From the NCBI RefSeq assembly GCF_000378045.1, contig NZ_KB899118.1, forward strand, positions 1 through 58,677: a stretch of 58,677 nucleotides of DNA, read 5' to 3'. The notes beneath the pieces were generated by a model, which was not told where the DNA came from, searched no databases, and was given only the letters and a program-made list of their open reading frames with translations. This DNA comes from Marinobacterium rhizophilum DSM 18822 (GTDB taxonomy: Bacteria > Pseudomonadota > Gammaproteobacteria > Pseudomonadales > Balneatricaceae). The position numbers and the translations under genes were made by a program. This document shows, piece after piece, positions 6,680 to 14,743 of this stretch (the first letter of the stretch is position 1; every line of letters starts with the position of its first letter).

Positions 6680-7190
6680 GAAGCCTTTCGCTGCGCTCTG
6701 CCCTCGCCGGCTTCATAAGGGGGACCGGAGCCGCGCTGAAATTTGGTTGCCAATCTGATGGTCTGGGCTCAATTGCCTGTACAGAAGCCTTACCCCGTTG
6801 TACCTTTCATTAGCCTGTCAGCATTTAGTTGATAAACAGCAGACGGGCCAAGCAGGCATCGCAGCGGATGCGCCCTGCAACCAAACACCGCCCGGCGCAC
6901 CTTGCTGCAAGAAAAAAGAGCCAAGAGACAGGCGCCCAGGCAAACGTACCACCGACAATCGTCAGCTGAGCATGGAAGCCAGTCTGGGTGACCTCACCCC
7001 CTCTATCCCTTCTATATTCCCCTGACCTGCACACACCACCACTCGCATTCCGTCACAGGGCGGGCGGTAGCGTGGCTTTTCGATCTGATGGCAAGTGGTG
7101 ATGCGTGATCTGACCCTATTATTGTGTCAGAAGGCAAAAGACAAGACCTGACCGTATGACTCACGATGTTTCTGCCATAAGGAGGATAGA

Positions 7191-7811
7191 ATGTCGGACA
7201 TAACGCTAAACTTCATCAATAAATCCAATGATCAAAACAACTCTGAATTTGTAATATTTTCCAAGAATACTTTCGGCGGCTCTGATTACAGCTCAGTTGC
7301 CTGGAAGGTGATTCGAAATCTTGGTACAGGTGACACTCACCAATTTGTATACCCAAGCAATTTTTCCGTTTCTGTCGAAGACAACTATGGAAATTACACG
7401 CCACAGTTGAAGGCGAACCCGGGAGACCTTTTTGCCATGGTCAAGGACCAAACGGGTGACGTGATAAAACATCTAGGGACAGGAAATTATGGGAATGCAT
7501 TCAAGGTCGAAAACCGCCTTGAGCAAGGCTCCATAAAAGCGAAGATTTACAAAGATGGAAAGTTATTCAACTCAAGCCCCAGTTTGGCTCCAGACCAAAA
7601 AGTCACATTTGAATTAGATCCTGTAATTTGCATAAGTGCTGTTTCGCATATTCAGGAAGGTGACGCTATAGAATCTGCGGCCGTTTCTTCGAAACCTTCT
7701 GAAATATCTTTATTGGGAATTAAGTCTGCCGATATTGTTGTTACCGGTGGTGGGCCTGGCAACGCTGCTGAGCCGTTCAAGTTTGAATTGGACAACGTGG
7801 TTGAATCCTGA
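7191..7811 (+). CDS. Uncharacterised protein of a widespread beta-rich family
   Basis: A 206-residue protein without signal peptide or membrane segment. It begins SDITLNFINKSNDQNNSEF and ends with VVTGGGPGNAAEPFKFELDNVV. I recall similar uncharacterised proteins with the same start and a conserved C-terminal SLLGIxSADIVxTGGGPG block in diverse bacteria, sometimes misnamed as ring-opening dioxygenases. No metal site or catalytic motif is evident. The start has a strong AAGGAGG about 7 bp upstream. The gene is clearly more AT-rich than its GC-rich flanks and stands next to an integrase remnant, suggesting horizontal acquisition. Confidence 0.75.
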   Translation: MSDITLNFINKSNDQNNSEFVIFSKNTFGGSDYSSVAWKVIRNLGTGDTHQFVYPSNFSVSVEDNYGNYTPQLKANPGDLFAMVKDQTGDVIKHLGTGNYGNAFKVENRLEQGSIKAKIYKDGKLFNSSPSLAPDQKVTFELDPVICISAVSHIQEGDAIESAAVSSKPSEISLLGIKSADIVVTGGGPGNAAEPFKFELDNVVES

Positions 7812-7815
7812 GTTT

Positions 7816-8130
7816 TCACCGGATCCCGGTATGTTCGGACCCGACAGGATTGCCCAACGCCTCACAGACGCGATTCAGGACGTCCCTGCGCCGCTCTCCG
7901 TCCTTCAGATGGCTGCCATGCAGCTTGAACCACTCGTCGATCAGCTGGGACAGACGCCGCCGGTCGGCCTTCTTCGGCTCCCAGTCCGGGCCCTGGGCAT
8001 GCTGTGCCCTTAACCAGGCCTCCCAGCGCTTGCCCTCGGCCTTGGTCTTGAACGTCTTGCGGTATCGGGGGCAGGAGTGTCCGATATGGATATCGAACTT
8101 CCAGCCGCTGTCGGTCTTGGTGATAGCCAT
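7816..8130 (-). pseudogene. Phage-type tyrosine integrase, N-terminal remnant
   Basis: The 104-residue frame starts MAITKTDSGWKFDI and contains RYRKTFKTKAEGKRWEAWLR and ADRRRLSQLIDEWFKLHG, the arm-type DNA-binding domain and the start of the core-binding domain of phage integrases. After ALGNPV the frame runs into unrelated residues and stops; the catalytic domain with its R-H-R-Y residues is missing. It is therefore a truncated relic, joined tail-to-tail with the gene at 7191. An AGGAGG lies about 24 bp upstream of the ATG, too far to be a normal ribosome binding site. Confidence 0.75.
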
Positions 8131-8270
8131 GAAGCACCAATTAGATGATATAATTTCCTCCTAAATTGAGAACTCTAGACTCTATCACATTAGATTAAAC
8201 TAAAATCCCATATTAGCTTTTAGCTTGATTTTTCCAACTAGCGTGCTTATAGAGTATAAACAGGGACAGT

Positions 8271-9098
8271 ATGACCATTAATTTTGATGTTGTAATCGAA
8301 ACCCCAGAAGACTCGGTCGACATGAAGGCCGGGCTAGAATCTTTACAAGGTGTATCGGATGCAACTCGTTGCATTTCGGAAGCTATACTGACTGGAAATA
8401 CACCACAGAGACTGTCACATAAGGGAAAGGTTAGAACTGCTTTAAAAAGAAGGTTCAAAGGCTCGTACGGCCAGATCTTCAGCCTAGATATTCATGACGA
8501 AAAGTTAAAATCAAGATTTAATCTCATTGGAAAAGAAACCTTCGTTGAATTAATTACATATTTCATAAGCGAGGCTTTATACAAAGACTCAGTACAACTA
8601 TCTGATAAAGCCCAAAAAGTGCTGGATAGTCTAGGCGATTCGGCCGATAAGGTAGTAAAACAACTGCGTAAGTCCTCATTAGAGAACATCCATAAAATTT
8701 CAGTTTATTTTGATCATGACATTAAAATTAGATATAGAAAAAACAGACTGGAGTAAGAAGTAATTGCAAAGTTCGATAGTTCGACGGCTAAAGTTCTTGA
8801 AGCAAAAGAATCAAAAGATATTATAGACTTAACTGTTAGCATTACCCGTTTAAATATCAACACTGGAAATGGTCGGTTCCTAATTAAAGGGCAAAACGAT
8901 ACAGTAGCCTTTGGCTTCGGCGTAAATTACAGCGAAGTAAAAATAAGAGCCAAGAAACTATTTTCAGAAAATTTAAACTATAACAACGGTCTAAAGAGTG
9001 AAGATTGGAAATACCTAAAAATTAGTGCCTCACCTATAACTTTAAAAGATGGAAAAGTGGTCAAGTATATCGTCAAGAGAATTACAAATGACCAATAG
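8271..9098 (+). pseudogene. Uncharacterised gene interrupted by an in-frame TAA
   Basis: The frame starting at 8271 runs 161 codons (MTINFDVVIETPED to RYRKNRLE), meets TAA at 8754-8756, then continues open in the same frame for 113 more codons (EVIAKFDSSTAKVLEAKESK to VKRITNDQ) to TAG at 9096-9098. Both halves look equally protein-like, so the ancestral product was about 275 residues. The name and function are not known to me. No membrane segments. The 3' end overlaps the start of the next gene by 11 bp (ATG at 9088), which implies translational coupling and a joint role. A single substitution in a CAA, GAA or AAA codon would explain the stop. Sequencing error or readthrough cannot be excluded. 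Confidence 0.75.
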
Positions 9099-9825
9099 AT
9101 ATATAATTGCAGCTGCAGTCACTATAGCCGTAGTTTTTTTATCATATTTTATACATTTTTATATGATTCTTGGCTATAAGATATCTAATGACTCTGCCAT
9201 TTGGGCACAACTCGGCGATTATGCAGGAGGTATCCTCAATCCTATTCTAAGTTTCATTTCGATTGTTCTATTAATTAAATCATTAACCCTTCAAAATCAG
9301 GCCAACTTGGATCTTAGAAGAGAAATAAAAAACAACGAGAAAACAGAAAAATTAAAATCTTTCGAATCTATATTTTTTAATATGATTAATTCACAAAAAT
9401 ATTTATTTGACACATTTCGAATTGAAGTCAGTATAGACGAAGAATATGTGACAAGGACTGGCGTTGAAGCAGTTATTGAAATTGAAAACGCAATAGAAGC
9501 AAGAAGAGAAAATAATCCTAATGATAATATTGTTCAAGAATATCTTGATAACCTTGACGCTTTCGATCAAATATTTGGGATTACCCGAACTTTCTACATA
9601 ATGGTGAAGATGATTTCAGAGAAGTTGAGTGACTCCCATGGCTTTAATTTGGAAGATAGAAATTCACATTTTTTAACATTATTAAACTTTACAGATTTCG
9701 CTCAACTCAGGCTTATCATGATCTGCGTACAATTTATGGACTTTGAGTCAGTAAAATACTTGAAAAATAATGATGAATTCAAAGCCGTTCTTGATGAAAC
9801 GGGTTTAAGCTACGAGCTATACTAG
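9088..9825 (+). CDS. Putative phage abortive infection protein (AbiC-like), membrane anchored
   Basis: A 245-residue protein with two N-terminal membrane segments (about residues 4-30 and 48-68) separated by SNDSAIWAQLGDYAGGILNP. The W-x-x-LGDYxGGxLNPxLSF pattern, then a charged helical region (LQNQANLDLRREIKNNEK) and a soluble domain beginning FESIFFNMIN, match the layout of putative phage abortive infection proteins related to AbiC. Family assignment is by pattern memory. Start chosen at 9088 rather than 9049 because it overlaps the previous stop and removes 13 residues of non-homologous lead. Strongly AT-rich, unlike the chromosome around it. Likely partner of the broken gene upstream. Confidence 0.7.
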   Translation: MTNRYIIAAAVTIAVVFLSYFIHFYMILGYKISNDSAIWAQLGDYAGGILNPILSFISIVLLIKSLTLQNQANLDLRREIKNNEKTEKLKSFESIFFNMINSQKYLFDTFRIEVSIDEEYVTRTGVEAVIEIENAIEARRENNPNDNIVQEYLDNLDAFDQIFGITRTFYIMVKMISEKLSDSHGFNLEDRNSHFLTLLNFTDFAQLRLIMICVQFMDFESVKYLKNNDEFKAVLDETGLSYELY

Positions 9826-9915
9826 ACAAATAAAAATTACTAACTCAAAGAGAGCGTTCAGAGTTCTGTTTCAGACGATAACTGTTATATTTTATCTACC
9901 AAAAAATAAAAACTA

Positions 9916-10659
9916 TCAAATCTGACATTCTTTTGTGATAAAAGTTTTCTCCTTTTTATTATAAACCGATACATAACCTCTATCTAACGTAGCAGAAAGT
10001 TCACCAGAGTTTACATTTTTACAATGCGTTTTTGAAAAATACTCTGTTTCTAACAGAATCTCACCTGAAATCTGGTCATAAAAATTTTCCGCTTCTTCAA
10101 CATATTCAAAAGAAAACGATATTAACATTAGCAAAGAAAAGAGACCTAAAAATCGCGCCAACACATTAATAAATTTTAATGTTTCCCCATCCCTTCTCTT
10201 TTCAAAGAAGATAATAATCCAGTAAATTGAAATCAATATAAAAATAACAAAAAAAACGATAAGAAACCAAGACGCCGGGACAAACAAAAAAGATATAACA
10301 CTAGTAGCAAAAGGGAAATAACTTGGATCAACCCCTACAAATTCATTTACAAAATCATTAGCAAAAATCTCAGAAAGCTTATAAGCAAATAGCGCCAAAC
10401 CAGCCAAAACAAATCTAAATAAAACACTTGAATATATTTTCATTACGACATAAGCGTATTCAATCAATGTTGCAATAGATAATAATGCTCCTGATAACAA
10501 AACCAACAACAAAGACCAATCTATAGCCCATAAAATATAATAAAATTCCCATAATAAACGCAATAATATAGCGATGATTAGAATTATCACCCCAAGGCGA
10601 TACATCTTCTCGTAAATAAGCGAGCAAGGAAACTTCAAGCCACTATCATTAATAGCCAT
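9916..10659 (-). CDS. Uncharacterised polytopic membrane protein in the AT-rich island
   Basis: A 247-residue protein with about five hydrophobic segments (roughly residues 21-38, 45-70, 80-95, 120-155 including SWFLIVFFVIFILISIYWII, 165-183) and a hydrophilic C-terminus of about 60 residues. I do not recognise the family. It is convergent with the AbiC-like gene and shares its low GC content and codon use. A remnant frame with one membrane helix (10699-10857) lies just upstream on the same strand. A role alongside the defence-like pair is possible but not shown by sequence. Confidence 0.65.
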   Translation of the reverse strand: MAINDSGLKFPCSLIYEKMYRLGVIILIIAILLRLLWEFYYILWAIDWSLLLVLLSGALLSIATLIEYAYVVMKIYSSVLFRFVLAGLALFAYKLSEIFANDFVNEFVGVDPSYFPFATSVISFLFVPASWFLIVFFVIFILISIYWIIIFFEKRRDGETLKFINVLARFLGLFSLLMLISFSFEYVEEAENFYDQISGEILLETEYFSKTHCKNVNSGELSATLDRGYVSVYNKKEKTFITKECQI

Positions 10660-10698
10660 GATATTGCCATCTCTTTAAGTATATACTTGTTAATATAG

Positions 10699-10857
10699 TT
10701 AGCCAGTTATTCGTAAAAGTGCATATATCAATATAACATTAAGAGTAACCGATGCCATCAGCATTACGGTCTTGTAGTCGGGAGAGTCGTTAGCAGCTTG
10801 AACAGGCCGCTTGGGATACTCTAAACGTTCGGCAAGTCTCTGTAGGCGATTCGAGGG
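10699..10857 (-). pseudogene. Possible C-terminal gene remnant with one membrane helix
   Basis: A frame with no early start codon runs 52 codons to TAA at 10699-10701. It reads RLQRLAERLEYPKRPVQAAND, then a hydrophobic helix MLMASVTLNVILIYALL. It ends 39 bp before the start of the membrane protein at 10659. The upstream part enters GC-rich repeat sequence, so it is likely a truncated gene at the island edge; it could also be chance. Confidence 0.3.
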
Positions 10858-10922
10858 TCACCCATTAGCCGACGGTGGTCAGGTCTTGCCTTTTGACACT
10901 TTAACGAGTTTTGGCACCCAAA

Positions 10923-11099
10923 CCTCAGAACGGCCCCCTCCCCCTTATGAAGCCGGCGAGCACTGTGGTCATTTTGCGAATTGGCCCGAAGGGGCGATAC
11001 CGGGACTGCCGAGCCGCAGATTAGGAGCATGAATGTGCCGGCTCTTCACCTTGACGGCAGGGCGCCCCCAAAATGGCCGCAGAGCACAGCGAAAAGGCT
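10923..11099 (+). repeat. Composite intergenic repeat, copy A
   Basis: Starts near TCAGAACGGCCCCCTCCCCC, contains GAAGCCGGCGAGCACTG, CCCGAAGGGGCGATACCGGG and ATGTGCCGGCTCTTCACCTT, then runs into REP copy 3. It lacks the terminal ACTTTCTTTGC palindrome found in copies B, C and D. Confidence 0.7.
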
Positions 11100-11101
11100 T
11101 C

Positions 11102-11116
11102 GTCGCGGGACGCGAC
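11102..11116. repeat. REP-like palindrome, copy 3
   Basis: GTCGCG-GGA-CGCGAC between AAAAGGCTTC and TCCTACGACC; opposite orientation to copies 1 and 2. Confidence 0.8.
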
Positions 11117-11183
11117 TCCTACGACCGCCGCAAGCTTCAGCAGTCAATCAGGCTACGCCGGTATCATTGAATCACTACGAACT

Positions 11184-11433
11184 ATCAGAACGGCTCCCTC
11201 CCCCCTCAGCAGCCGACGAGCACCGGGATTATGCTCCGATCAGACCCGAAGGGGCGAGACAGGGACTGTCGAGCCGCCGATTGGGGACATGGATGTCCCC
11301 TTAGCGGCGTCCGGAGCATCATTCCGGCGCGCAGTGCAGCCGAAGGCCGGCTGATGGGTGGCGCTTTTCTTTGGATACTTTCTTTGCGCGTGCAAAGAAA
11401 GTAACGCGCCAGCAAGGCGCAATACGCACCCAA
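11184..11433 (+). repeat. Composite intergenic repeat, copy B
   Basis: Same lead as copy A (CAGAACGGCTCCCTCCCCCC, then CCCGAAGGGGCGAGACAGGG and GGACATGGATGTCC), ending in a palindrome at 11376-11403: TACTTTCTTTGC, four-base loop, GCAAAGAAAGTA, followed by ACGCGCCAGCAAGGCGCAA. No gene lies within. Confidence 0.8.
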
Positions 11434-11502
11434 ACAACGCCAGAAATAGTCCCGTTTACCACCTTTCAATAAAGTAACCAGCTAGCCAACTGGCTCCCAC
11501 CG

Positions 11503-12717
11503 TTAGCCCCTTTCCCCCAAAACCACCACCCTCTCCCGCCGCCACAAGACAAACACCAATGTCAGCAGCATCGGCCCCACCACCATCAGGTTTACCCACT
11601 GCCAGCCGTGCAGCTCCAGCAAGAACCCGGCGAGTAAATTCGAGCCCGCCACCACGCTGAACAACAGCGTATCGTTCAGTGCCTGGGCCCGCTCGGCGTC
11701 CTCGGGCCGGTAGCTGTCTGCCAGCATATCGGTCGCGCTGACGAACATCAGATTCCAGCCAACGCCCAGCAGCAACAGGGCGGCGGCAAAGTTCAGCTTG
11801 TCGACACCGGCCAGATTGATACTCACCGCCACCAGGAAGCAGACGATACCCAGCGCTGCGGTGCTGCGGCTGCCGAACCGGCGCACCAGGCGGCCGGTGA
11901 CAAAGCTCGGCGCGAACATGCCCAGCGTATGCAGCTGAATCACCCAGTTGGAATCACTGCTGGCAAACCCGTACAGGCGCATGGCCAACGGTGTGGAGTT
12001 CATGATGAAGGCCATCGCCGCAAAGCCGATGGCACCCACCCACACCGCCAGGGCAAAACCCGGCTGGGCCGCGATCTGGCGCAGCGAGCGCTGTGCGCCC
12101 CTGGCAGGTGACCGGCGAACACGCAGGCGGGATTTGAGCAGCAACAGGGCCGTCAGCAGGCAGAGGGCGGCAACGGTCAGGTAGGTGCCAGCGTAGAGCT
12201 TAAGCAGCAGTCCCTGGCTCCAGTTGGCCAGCGGGCCACCGATCAGCGCGGCCAGTACGCCCCCGCTGAGCACCAGTCCGATGGCACGGCTGCGCCAGAC
12301 CGGCGGTGCCTGTTCGATGGCGGCAAAGCGATAGTGCTGCCAGGTCGCATTGTGTATTCCCAAGCCCAGCGTCGCGATGCAAAACCCCGTGAAGCTGCCC
12401 TGCAACGCACAGACGGCCGCCAGCAGTGCCGACAGCGCGCCGATCAGTTGGCCCAGCAAGAACACCGGCCTGCGGCCATAGCGGCGCATCGCCAGCGCCA
12501 CCACGAAGGCCCCCGCCGCCATGCTGACGAACTGCAGCGCCAGCGGCAGTGTGGCCAGTGACTTGTTATCCGCCAGCCCGAACCCGGTGAGCGCCGCCAC
12601 CGTGAGGTACAGCATCACCCCGGTCTGGGACAACGCCAGCGCCAGGCTCAGCAGGATCAGGTCATTACGCGCAGTCACCGACACTGTCCTGTCTTGCACC
12701 GCTTCACTCGATTCCAT
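11503..12717 (-). CDS. MFS transporter
   Basis: A 404-residue major facilitator protein with about 12 hydrophobic segments and a central hydrophilic loop near residues 195-215 (KSRLRVRRSPARGAQRS). The loop between helices 2 and 3 reads RRYGRRPVFLLG, matching the MFS G-x-x-x-D/R-R-x-G-R-R motif. Start at 12717 is supported by GGGAG eight bases upstream; an in-frame ATG at 12762 adds 15 residues without an RBS. The C-terminal half resembles tetracycline/sugar-type drug exporters, but the substrate is unknown. The gene stands alone between blocks of dispersed repeats. Confidence 0.85.
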   Translation of the reverse strand: MESSEAVQDRTVSVTARNDLILLSLALALSQTGVMLYLTVAALTGFGLADNKSLATLPLALQFVSMAAGAFVVALAMRRYGRRPVFLLGQLIGALSALLAAVCALQGSFTGFCIATLGLGIHNATWQHYRFAAIEQAPPVWRSRAIGLVLSGGVLAALIGGPLANWSQGLLLKLYAGTYLTVAALCLLTALLLLKSRLRVRRSPARGAQRSLRQIAAQPGFALAVWVGAIGFAAMAFIMNSTPLAMRLYGFASSDSNWVIQLHTLGMFAPSFVTGRLVRRFGSRSTAALGIVCFLVAVSINLAGVDKLNFAAALLLLGVGWNLMFVSATDMLADSYRPEDAERAQALNDTLLFSVVAGSNLLAGFLLELHGWQWVNLMVVGPMLLTLVFVLWRRERVVVLGERG

Positions 12718-12839
12718 GTGGATACTCCCGAATTTCAAAGAAAAAACGACTTTTTTGCGCATTGGCCAGGCGGGGCGAGCCAGGAACTGTCGAGCTGGCG
12801 AAATGGCGAAATGGCTTCAGAACACAGACAAAAGGCTTC

Positions 12840-12854: not shown

Positions 12855-12967
12855 TTCATACGACTGCCGCACGCTTCAGCAGGGAATCAGGCTTCGCCGG
12901 TATTGTTAAATCACTACAGAACGATCAGAGCCGGCGAAATGCGCTCAGAGCTCAGAGAAAAGGCTTC

Positions 12968-12982
12968 GTCGCGGGACGCGAC
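12968..12982. repeat. REP-like palindrome, copy 5
   Basis: Same core and flanks, 128 bp after copy 4; between them lies TTCGCCGGTATTGTTAAATC, shared with the next unit. Confidence 0.8.
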
Positions 12983-13094
12983 TCCTACAAACACCACAAG
13001 CTTCGGCAGGGAATTAGGCTGCGCCGGTATTGTTAAATCACTACAGAACGATCAGAGCCGGCAAAATGCGCTCAGAGCGCAGCGAAAAGGCTTC

Positions 13095-13109
13095 GTCGCG
13101 GGACGCGAC
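13095..13109. repeat. REP-like palindrome, copy 6
   Basis: Same core and flanks, 127 bp after copy 5, completing a head-to-tail array of three REP units upstream of the MFS gene. Confidence 0.8.
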
Positions 13110-13148
13110 TTCATACGACCACCGTAAGTTTCAGCAGGGACGTACAGA

Positions 13149-13417
13149 GCGATCAGAACGGCCGTCATCCCCCTTGTGAAGCCGGCGAGCGCTAAGGTCA
13201 TTCTGCGAACAGGCCCGCAGGGGCGATACAGGGACTGTATCGACGCTGATTAGCACATGGATGTGCCGGCTCTTAACCTTGGAGGCCGGCGCCCGCAAAA
13301 TGGCATCAGAGCGCAGCGAAAAGGCTTCATCGGGGCGCAATCTTTAAGGTAAAAAGCCTTGGTTACTTTCTTTGCGCGTGCAAAGAAAGTAACGCGCCAG
13401 CAAGGCGCAAAACACGG
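13149..13417 (+). repeat. Composite intergenic repeat, copy C
   Basis: Matches copies A and B (CAGAACGGCCGTC, GTGAAGCCGGCGAGCG, GATACAGGGACTG, ATGTGCCGGCTCTTAACCTT), includes a degenerate REP flank (AGCGAAAAGGCTTCATCGG) and ends with a perfect 13-bp stem palindrome TTACTTTCTTTGC/GCAAAGAAAGTAA at 13363-13392. Confidence 0.8.
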
Positions 13418-14435: not shown

Positions 14436-14656
14436 TTGTTACTTCCATTGCGCTTTGCTGGCGCGATACTTTCTTTGCTCGTGCAAAGAAAGTATCCAAA
14501 GAAAGCACGCCCGAAGCAGCCTCAACTACTGCGCGCTGAAACGATTTTTCGGATGCCGCTGACGTCACGTCCCTGTGCCGCATCGGCAGCTCGGCATCCA
14601 TGCCTCGCCCCTGCCGGGTCTTATCGAAAAATAGTCCCAGTGCTCGTCGGCTCCTA
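14436..14656 (-). repeat. Composite intergenic repeat, copy D (inverted)
   Basis: The reverse complement of the B/C type: it reads GAGCCGACGAGCACTGGGAC, then AGACCCGGCAGGGGCGA, and ends with the ACTTTCTTTGC palindrome (14464-14493) and CGCGCCAGCAAAGCGCAA. It fills the gap between the amidase and hydratase genes. Confidence 0.8.
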
Positions 14657-14743
14657 ACGGGATTCGGGGTGGTAGCTGCAAGTCACTGGGAGTGCTTCGG
14701 CTAGCTAGCCTATCCCGCCAATGACATAACCAGCGACCGACGG

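What the first reader, a model, noticed from the sequence alone, without database searches (positions are those of the whole stretch)
8271..9825. Putative two-gene defence unit: unknown protein plus AbiC-like membrane protein
An AT-rich patch beside a truncated phage integrase holds a gene of about 275 codons whose end overlaps (11 bp) the start of a membrane protein with the layout of putative abortive-infection (AbiC-like) proteins. Overlap implies coupled translation and a joint role. Location, composition and the partner type point to an acquired anti-phage cassette. The partner is of a family I cannot name, so the pair may be undescribed. This is the best candidate in the window for a novel system.
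Basis: partly seen in the sequence, partly recalled or inferred. Interest (0 to 1): 0.75.

Follow-up and report, generated by a model that had tools for sequence, protein, structure and literature searches.

The report
Unnamed two-gene phage-defence candidate
Two overlapping genes, one for a soluble protein and one for a membrane protein, travel together in prophages, plasmids and genomes and turn up in a known anti-phage hotspot, so they are probably an undescribed bacterial defence unit, although the copy in this window has a broken first gene.

Summary
Gene A (8271-9098, soluble) has one in-frame stop at codon 162. Its end overlaps gene B (9088-9825, two predicted membrane helices) by exactly 11 bp. 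Both lie in an AT-rich insert (A 36%, B 32% GC; window 59%), next to a truncated integrase.

Searched as separate pieces, both halves of A hit one phage family (phrog_13337); B hits phrog_8999. No PADLOC model matches either. The pairing is strict: all 48 distinct full-length A genes held have B directly downstream (-26 to +10 bp). Distant cousins of either family lack the partner.

The pair sits on IncX1 and small Col plasmids. In P2-like viral contigs it lies between gpA and the portal gene, a published anti-phage hotspot. In one same-genus genome the same site carries a RelA/SpoT-domain gene instead.

B is a distant full-length relative of putAbiC-like proteins. A matches no solved fold at E 0.001, but the model of an intact relative resembles a DUF6575 phage protein; a DUF6575 protein was found in a published anti-phage selection. 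My reading is sensor/antitoxin A plus membrane effector B, acting by abortive infection. Function is untested, and this copy is probably inactive. One result against: PADLOC models were no more frequent among neighbours than in a control.

The parts
8271..9098 (+). Gene A: soluble protein, frame of 275 codons interrupted once by TAA at 8754-8756 (codon 162); probably inactive in this copy
   Evidence: pieces searched apart hit phrog_13337 at profile positions 4-163 and 167-272; weak, sub-cut-off DUF7946 and DUF7947 matches
8271..8756 (+). Gene A, first piece (P0003, 161 aa): N-terminal alpha/beta domain
   Evidence: 54-61% identical to its six best relatives; phrog_13337 E 6.9e-26
8757..9098 (+). 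Gene A, second piece (P0001, 113 aa): C-terminal beta-rich DUF7947-like domain with the conserved TRxNxxTGxGRL stretch
   Evidence: 49-65% identical to its six best relatives; for the four relatives on both lists 55-65% against 56-61% for the first piece; phrog_13337 E 1.4e-20
9088..9825 (+). Gene B: 245-aa membrane protein; two N-terminal hydrophobic segments, helix 4-27, long helix 36-108, beta hairpin, helical bundle
   Evidence: phrog_8999 E 4.8e-35; AlphaFold2 mean pLDDT 90; hydropathy; profile match to putAbiC-like proteins
9088..9098 (+). 11-bp overlap of the end of A with the start of B
7816..8130 (-). Integrase fragment (N-terminal part only), cut near the left end of the insert
7825..10917 (.). 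Insert without a match in the same site of a same-genus genome (right end uncertain, 10918-11070, because of dispersed repeats)
   Evidence: flanks align at 88.7% (6775-7824) and 95.2% (11071-12747); no match listed for 7825-10917
7191..7811 (+). 206-aa gene of unknown family, left flank of the variable site
   Evidence: present in G003 at the same place; no Pfam match for the G003 copy
9916..10659 (-). ORF C, 247 aa, five hydrophobic segments, convergent with B; no relation to the pair shown
   Evidence: no relative found in viral contigs
11503..12762 (-). MFS transporter, right flank of the variable site
   Evidence: PF07690; inside the 95.2% flank in G003

Best explanation
A-B is a two-gene anti-phage unit of the abortive-infection kind, carried by mobile elements. 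Shown here: it is a genetic unit (fixed order, near-zero spacing, co-divergence, purifying selection in relatives), A is predicted soluble, B has predicted membrane helices, and the pair occupies a place in P2-like phages that is published as a defence hotspot. Inferred: B is the effector. Its membrane hairpin and 73-residue helix would assemble in the inner membrane and harm the infected cell. A is the sensor or regulator, encoded first and coupled to B by the overlap, which holds B inactive (antitoxin-like) or switches it on when an infection cue appears. The C-terminal beta-rich domain of A is my best guess for the part that meets the cue, perhaps a nucleic acid. In this window A is broken, so this copy is probably a remnant.
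For: Strict pairing: 48 of 48 distinct full-length A genes held (42 groups at about 90% identity) have B at -26 to +10 bp, none without. Over the first 46 the A and B distances correlate at r = 0.89, 0 of 2000 permutations as high. 15 of 15 genome loci were found from A alone. Three strong hits in genome samples (G277, G622, G695) carry B. dN/dS is 0.03-0.28 for both genes in six comparisons, some with few changes or saturated silent sites. A lacks a membrane segment in 45 of 46; B has at least two in 48 of 50. In P2-like viral contigs the pair lies between gpA and portal: both sides named in 3 loci, one side in 4 more. PMC9122126 and PMC9519451 describe that interval as a defence hotspot (passages). 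B is a profile relative of putAbiC-like proteins, including its C-terminal half alone. The model of an intact A relative matches a DUF6575 phage protein at E 1.6e-8, and DUF6575 is among the domains of the systems in PMC9519451 (passages). The window's chromosomal site holds a RelA/SpoT-domain gene in G003.
Against: I found no phage test for any member. PADLOC models were no more numerous among 134 neighbours than among 134 control proteins: 75 against 74 families at E 1e-10. No PADLOC model hits A or B. No solved structure matches either model at E 0.001. The DUF6575 fold match has poor global superposition (TM 0.35 and 0.27, rmsd 15), the best-ranked viral match is an uncharacterised protein, and no DUF6575 sequence match was listed. 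Nucleic-acid binding by A rests on weak OB and cold-shock matches only; a profile comparison with two cold-shock proteins was negative.
Confidence: 0.55

Rival explanations
1. A-B is a toxin-antitoxin or plasmid-maintenance module: A is the antitoxin and B a membrane toxin, and the benefit is keeping the element rather than stopping phages.
For: Soluble first gene overlapping a membrane second gene; carriage on Col-type plasmids of 4652 and 6126 bp with 5 and 7 annotated genes and on IncX1 plasmids. PD-T4-10 in PMC9519451 is an overlapping pair, antitoxin first and toxin second, that stops T-even phages (passages), so the two readings may be one.
Against: Recurrence at the P2 gpA-portal interval, where published cargo includes many anti-phage genes (passages); relation of B to putAbiC.
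Confidence: 0.25
2. The pair is superinfection exclusion or entry exclusion: B changes the inner membrane so that DNA of related phages or plasmids cannot enter, with A as accessory.
For: Small two-helix membrane protein on viral contigs and conjugative plasmids.
Against: Such exclusion proteins are usually very small and act without a 275-aa soluble partner (general knowledge); B has a large helical domain after its membrane part.
Confidence: 0.1
3. The pair is mobile-element cargo with no defence role, for example a regulator or metabolic accessory.
For: No functional annotation; PADLOC models among neighbours not more frequent than in a control.
Against: Purifying selection, fixed pairing across unrelated carriers, placement in the P2 hotspot and in a chromosomal site with other cargo in a relative.
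Confidence: 0.1

Closest known systems
putAbiC, Pfam PF16872 (putative phage abortive infection protein)
   Same: Same layout: N-terminal membrane helices with a WGxFGDxxGGxxNPxLSF-type stretch, a long helix, then a helical domain. hhalign 99.9% over 215 columns against 55 putAbiC-like viral proteins; C-terminal halves alone 87.6%, E 3.5e-6. 5 of 8 such cousins sampled match PF16872 above its cut-off.
   Different: B shows no PF16872 match (at E 1; 0 of 36 members at E 0.01), and it has a partner A, which 0 of 55 cousins have (one of the 55, L065, starts at its contig end and cannot be judged).
DUF7946-DUF7947 proteins (Pfam PF25678, PF25679)
   Same: A has the same two-part order; 24 of 24 A C-terminal domains match DUF7947 at E 1 or better, best 2.8e-5.
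   Different: The window's two pieces are below the Pfam cut-offs. Five distant A-type proteins found in genome surveys have no B; two of them, the only ones scanned, pass both Pfam cut-offs.
DUF6575 protein of an anti-phage system in PMC9519451
   Same: Foldseek match of the A-relative model to a DUF6575 phage protein, E 1.6e-8, probability 1.00.
   Different: No sequence match to the DUF6575 model was listed; global superposition is poor; the passages read do not say which system or partner it belongs to.
PD-T4-10 (PMC9519451)
   Same: Two overlapping genes of unknown function, protection by abortive infection, antitoxin first and toxin second (passages).
   Different: No PADLOC model hits A or B at E 1; that the library includes PD-T4-10 is my assumption, and the sequences were not compared directly.
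P2 old and tin and other gpA-gpQ cargo (PMC9122126)
   Same: Same place in P2-like phages (passages).
   Different: Different proteins as far as the text read tells; supplementary tables not seen.

Membership tests
putAbiC (PF16872) | Pfam gathering score over the C-terminal domain | tested here: not met
   No match for B at E 1; 0 of 36 B members at E 0.01
putAbiC (PF16872) | Homology over most of the length by profile comparison with putAbiC-like proteins | tested here: met
   hhalign 99.9%, E 3.1e-31, 215 columns; C-terminal halves 87.6%, E 3.5e-6 (E-values are for one comparison)
putAbiC (PF16872) | Abortive infection of phage-infected cells | not testable with these tools
   Needs a phage assay
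DUF7946-DUF7947 | Gathering scores of both domains | tested here: not met
   14.6 of 27 bits and 23.6 of 27 bits for the two pieces
DUF7946-DUF7947 | Family-level similarity of the C-terminal domain | tested here: met
   24 of 24 C-terminal domains match DUF7947 at E 1 or better, best E 2.8e-5
phrog_13337 with phrog_8999 (unnamed pair) | Each protein matches its PHROG and the two are adjacent in order A then B | tested here: met
   E 6.9e-26 and 1.4e-20 for the pieces of A, 4.8e-35 for B; order and overlap
Known defence systems in PADLOC-DB 2.0.0 | Profile match | tested here: not met
   No match for A pieces or B at E 1
Toxin-antitoxin module | Small adjacent or overlapping pair | tested here: met
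   Gene order and spacing; which gene, if any, is toxic is unknown
Toxin-antitoxin module | B toxic alone and neutralised by A | not testable with these tools
   Needs expression assays
DUF6575 | Sequence profile match | tested here: not met
   DUF6575 not among the matches listed at E 1
DUF6575 | Same fold | tested here: inconclusive
   Foldseek E 1.6e-8, probability 1.00, but TM-scores 0.35 and 0.27 and rmsd 15
Cold-shock or OB nucleic-acid-binding domain (C-terminal part of A) | Fold or profile match | tested here: inconclusive
   OB and cold-shock chains among weak PDB matches, E 0.05-0.4; hhalign with two similar cold-shock proteins negative; PDB profile search negative

The most novel reading that the evidence does not exclude
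An undescribed family of anti-phage systems in which a soluble two-domain sensor (DUF7946/DUF7947-like, perhaps the same fold as DUF6575) controls a membrane effector of the putAbiC superfamily. It would give a putAbiC-type effector a dedicated sensor partner, and it would link three domains of unknown function (DUF7946, DUF7947, DUF6575) to phage sensing.
Probability: 0.45. Interest if true: 0.72.

Novelty: new variant of a known kind. Interest (0 to 1): 0.6.

Why it matters
If the pair protects, it adds a two-gene defence family that no PADLOC 2.0.0 model matches, found in P2-like viral contigs, IncX1 and Col plasmids and chromosomes of several genera. It would let one ask how putAbiC-type membrane proteins are switched on, since here the likely switch is a separate gene that can be studied alone. 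It would also suggest a role for DUF7946/DUF7947 proteins, for which no paper was found in the library.

Tried and rejected
Sequence searches. PADLOC for the A pieces, B, ORF C and the 206-aa protein gave no match at E 1; the integrase fragment gave one chance-level match. NCBIfam gave only chance-level matches to A and B. PDB sequence searches with A, B and the A C-terminal profile gave nothing meaningful.

Cold-shock idea. The conserved TRxNxxTGxGRL stretch of A looked to me like a cold-shock motif (my own reading). hhalign with two cold-shock proteins, which are very similar to each other, was negative, and a Pfam scan of 24 C-terminal domains listed no cold-shock family, so nucleic-acid binding stays a guess.

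Defence-island test. I scanned 134 neighbour ORFs (90 aa or more, simple ORF picking) within 6 kb of 16 pair loci against PADLOC, and 134 proteins drawn at random from 172 in 16 stretches of G000 that I picked by position. They gave 75 and 74 families at E 1e-10. By this count there is no enrichment. Names such as PDC-S46, MzaA, PD-Lambda-5_B and a DRT reverse transcriptase occur only on the neighbour list, but just the first 25 families of each list are shown, so I draw no conclusion. The control is a single genome, not matched hosts.

Rows dropped. The 48 pairs exclude the window's own copies (L001, L002, L110, L163; broken A), A-type hits under 100 bits (L111, L112, L153, L154, L206, L207, L208; none has B) and duplicates. 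The Mantel test used the 46 pairs held at that time. Of 25 high-scoring B loci in the viral scan, 22 show A; in the other three (L031, L038, L052) B begins at base 1-29 of the locus. That scan kept 80 of 87 confirmed loci. For viral neighbours I scanned 148 of 194 proteins.

ORF C gave no relative in viral contigs. A DUF6575 survey of 185 genomes gave one sub-cut-off match with no informative neighbour. B-type proteins of three Leptospira elements and one faecal phage record were looked at; no A-type protein was found in those stretches.

Literature. No paper holds DUF7946 or DUF7947, putAbiC or PF16872, the six protein accessions tried, or the two PHROG numbers or phage Kp4865-4. Other term searches gave none or two papers of which I read passages only. 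Of PMC9122126 and PMC9519451 I read passages, not the whole text; their supplements were not open, so I cannot exclude that the pair is listed there without a name. For the other papers I saw the listing only.

Full report
What is there. The insert lies in a 58.7-kb contig (G000:C30) of an unnamed 5.36-Mb genome. Gene A runs from 8271 to 9098 in one frame with a single in-frame TAA at 8754-8756; gene B runs from 9088 to 9825; the overlap is 11 bp. GC is 36.0% and 31.6% in a 58.8% window. On the other strand upstream lies an integrase fragment of 104 aa.

One gene with one stop. The two pieces of A match consecutive parts of phrog_13337 (4-163, 167-272). Against the four relatives on both best-six lists they are 56-61% and 55-65% identical, so the part after the stop has not decayed faster. 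The break is therefore probably recent, or an error in this one assembly. Intact copies exist: the 48 distinct pairs found elsewhere have an A of full length.

The pair recurs. tblastn in plasmid and phage records found A next to B on IncX1 plasmids, on Col-type plasmids of 4652 and 6126 bp, on an Acinetobacter, a Photobacterium and a Plesiomonas plasmid (the last beside phage tail genes), and in Klebsiella phage Kp4865-4. A scan of viral contigs with B gave 80 loci. Of the 25 that score at least 150 bits against the B model, 22 have A beside B and in the other three the locus begins at B. None of the 55 that score under 85 bits has A, though one of these also begins at B. A scan of species genomes with A alone gave 15 loci, and 15 of 15 have B directly downstream. 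Over all held loci, 48 of 48 distinct full-length A genes (42 groups at about 90% identity) have B at -26 to +10 bp on the same strand. Over the first 46 the distance matrices correlate at r = 0.89 with 0 of 2000 permutations as high; linkage alone can give such a correlation. Both genes are under purifying selection in relatives, dN/dS 0.03-0.28 in six comparisons, two with very few changes and one with saturated silent sites.

It is rare and patchy. In genome samples A-type matches are found in 4 of 369 (class, phrog_13337), 5 of 390 (order, own profile) and 2 of 398 (phylum, own profile), each count including the window's own genome. The three strong non-self hits (G277, G622, G695) carry B. 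The five weak ones (G156, G262, G426, G512, G1032) do not; the two of them scanned with Pfam are true DUF7946/DUF7947 proteins. In E. coli one variant matches in 14 of 5426 genomes, all on plasmids (12 with at least 80% of the query), and another in 82 of 5426, all on chromosomes.

Where it sits. Of 148 viral neighbours scanned (of 194), the commonest PHROGs include the P2-type replication nickase (7) and portal (7). Named one by one, the gpA-type gene and the portal gene flank the pair in L037, L040 and L041; gpA was named on one side in L039 and L043, and portal in L059 and L020. PMC9122126 describes this interval between gpA and gpQ as a hotspot of anti-phage systems and the home of old and tin, and PMC9519451 found four of its systems there (passages). 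In the window's own genus, G003 has the same flanks (88.7% and 95.2% identical), but between them a RelA/SpoT-domain protein of 436 aa in place of the insert. RelA/SpoT-type proteins are known in toxin and phage-defence roles (general knowledge), so this chromosomal site too may be one that swaps such cargo. It is one comparison.

What the proteins are. B has two predicted membrane helices (at least two in 48 of 50 distinct members). Its AlphaFold2 model (mean pLDDT 90) has helix 4-27, one helix 36-108, a hairpin and a helical bundle. It has no PF16872 match, but profile comparison shows it is a distant relative of putAbiC-like proteins over 215 columns, and the C-terminal halves match on their own. 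A has no membrane segment in 45 of 46 members. The modelled A is an intact relative from a viral contig (L016, identical to the Plesiomonas one), not the window's broken copy; it models well (mean pLDDT 89). No solved structure matches it at E 0.001. Against predicted viral structures three match at that level: an uncharacterised protein (E 4.0e-9), a DUF6575 protein (E 1.6e-8) and a Leptospira phage protein (E 3.1e-5), all with poor global superposition. The only paper in the library that mentions DUF6575 is the anti-phage selection PMC9519451.

Mechanism. The anatomy suggests a soluble controller made first and a membrane effector made second. I infer that B harms the inner membrane of infected cells and that A restrains or triggers it. 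Which of the two A does, and what cue it reads, is not shown by anything here.

Against. I found no phage test of the pair. PADLOC models are as common in a control set as among neighbours (75 against 74 families). The fold link to DUF6575 has no sequence support. The window's own copy is interrupted.

Novelty. No PADLOC model fits and no paper was found under the terms tried, but supplements were closed and preprints are not held. I rate it a new variant of a known kind (two-gene abortive-infection unit with a membrane effector), with a fair chance of being an undescribed family.

Noticed in passing
window 11000-11460, 12930-13410, 14447-14661: Dispersed repeats with many copies in the seven genomes of the genus searched; they blur the right end of the insert.
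   Followed up: no
window 7191-7811: 206-aa gene without Pfam or PADLOC match and only a chance-level PHROG match, kept at the left edge of the variable site in two genomes of the genus.
   Followed up: partly
L203:5146-6456: RelA/SpoT-domain protein (436 aa) in the place where the window has the pair: possible swapped defence cargo in a chromosomal site.
   Followed up: partly
L153:7195-8103: A DUF7946/DUF7947 protein lies between ORFs that look like pieces of Rhs genes (my reading), without B: a possible other use of the A fold.
   Followed up: no
L007 and L008: Col-type plasmids of 6126 and 4652 bp that carry the A-B pair among only 7 and 5 annotated genes.
   Followed up: partly
L010:9782-11526: AAA ATPase plus DUF3226 gene pair about 1.1 kb downstream of the A-B pair, in a stretch with phage tail genes.
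   Followed up: partly
window 9916-10659: Convergent 247-aa ORF with five hydrophobic segments in the same AT-rich insert; no relative found in viral contigs.
   Followed up: partly
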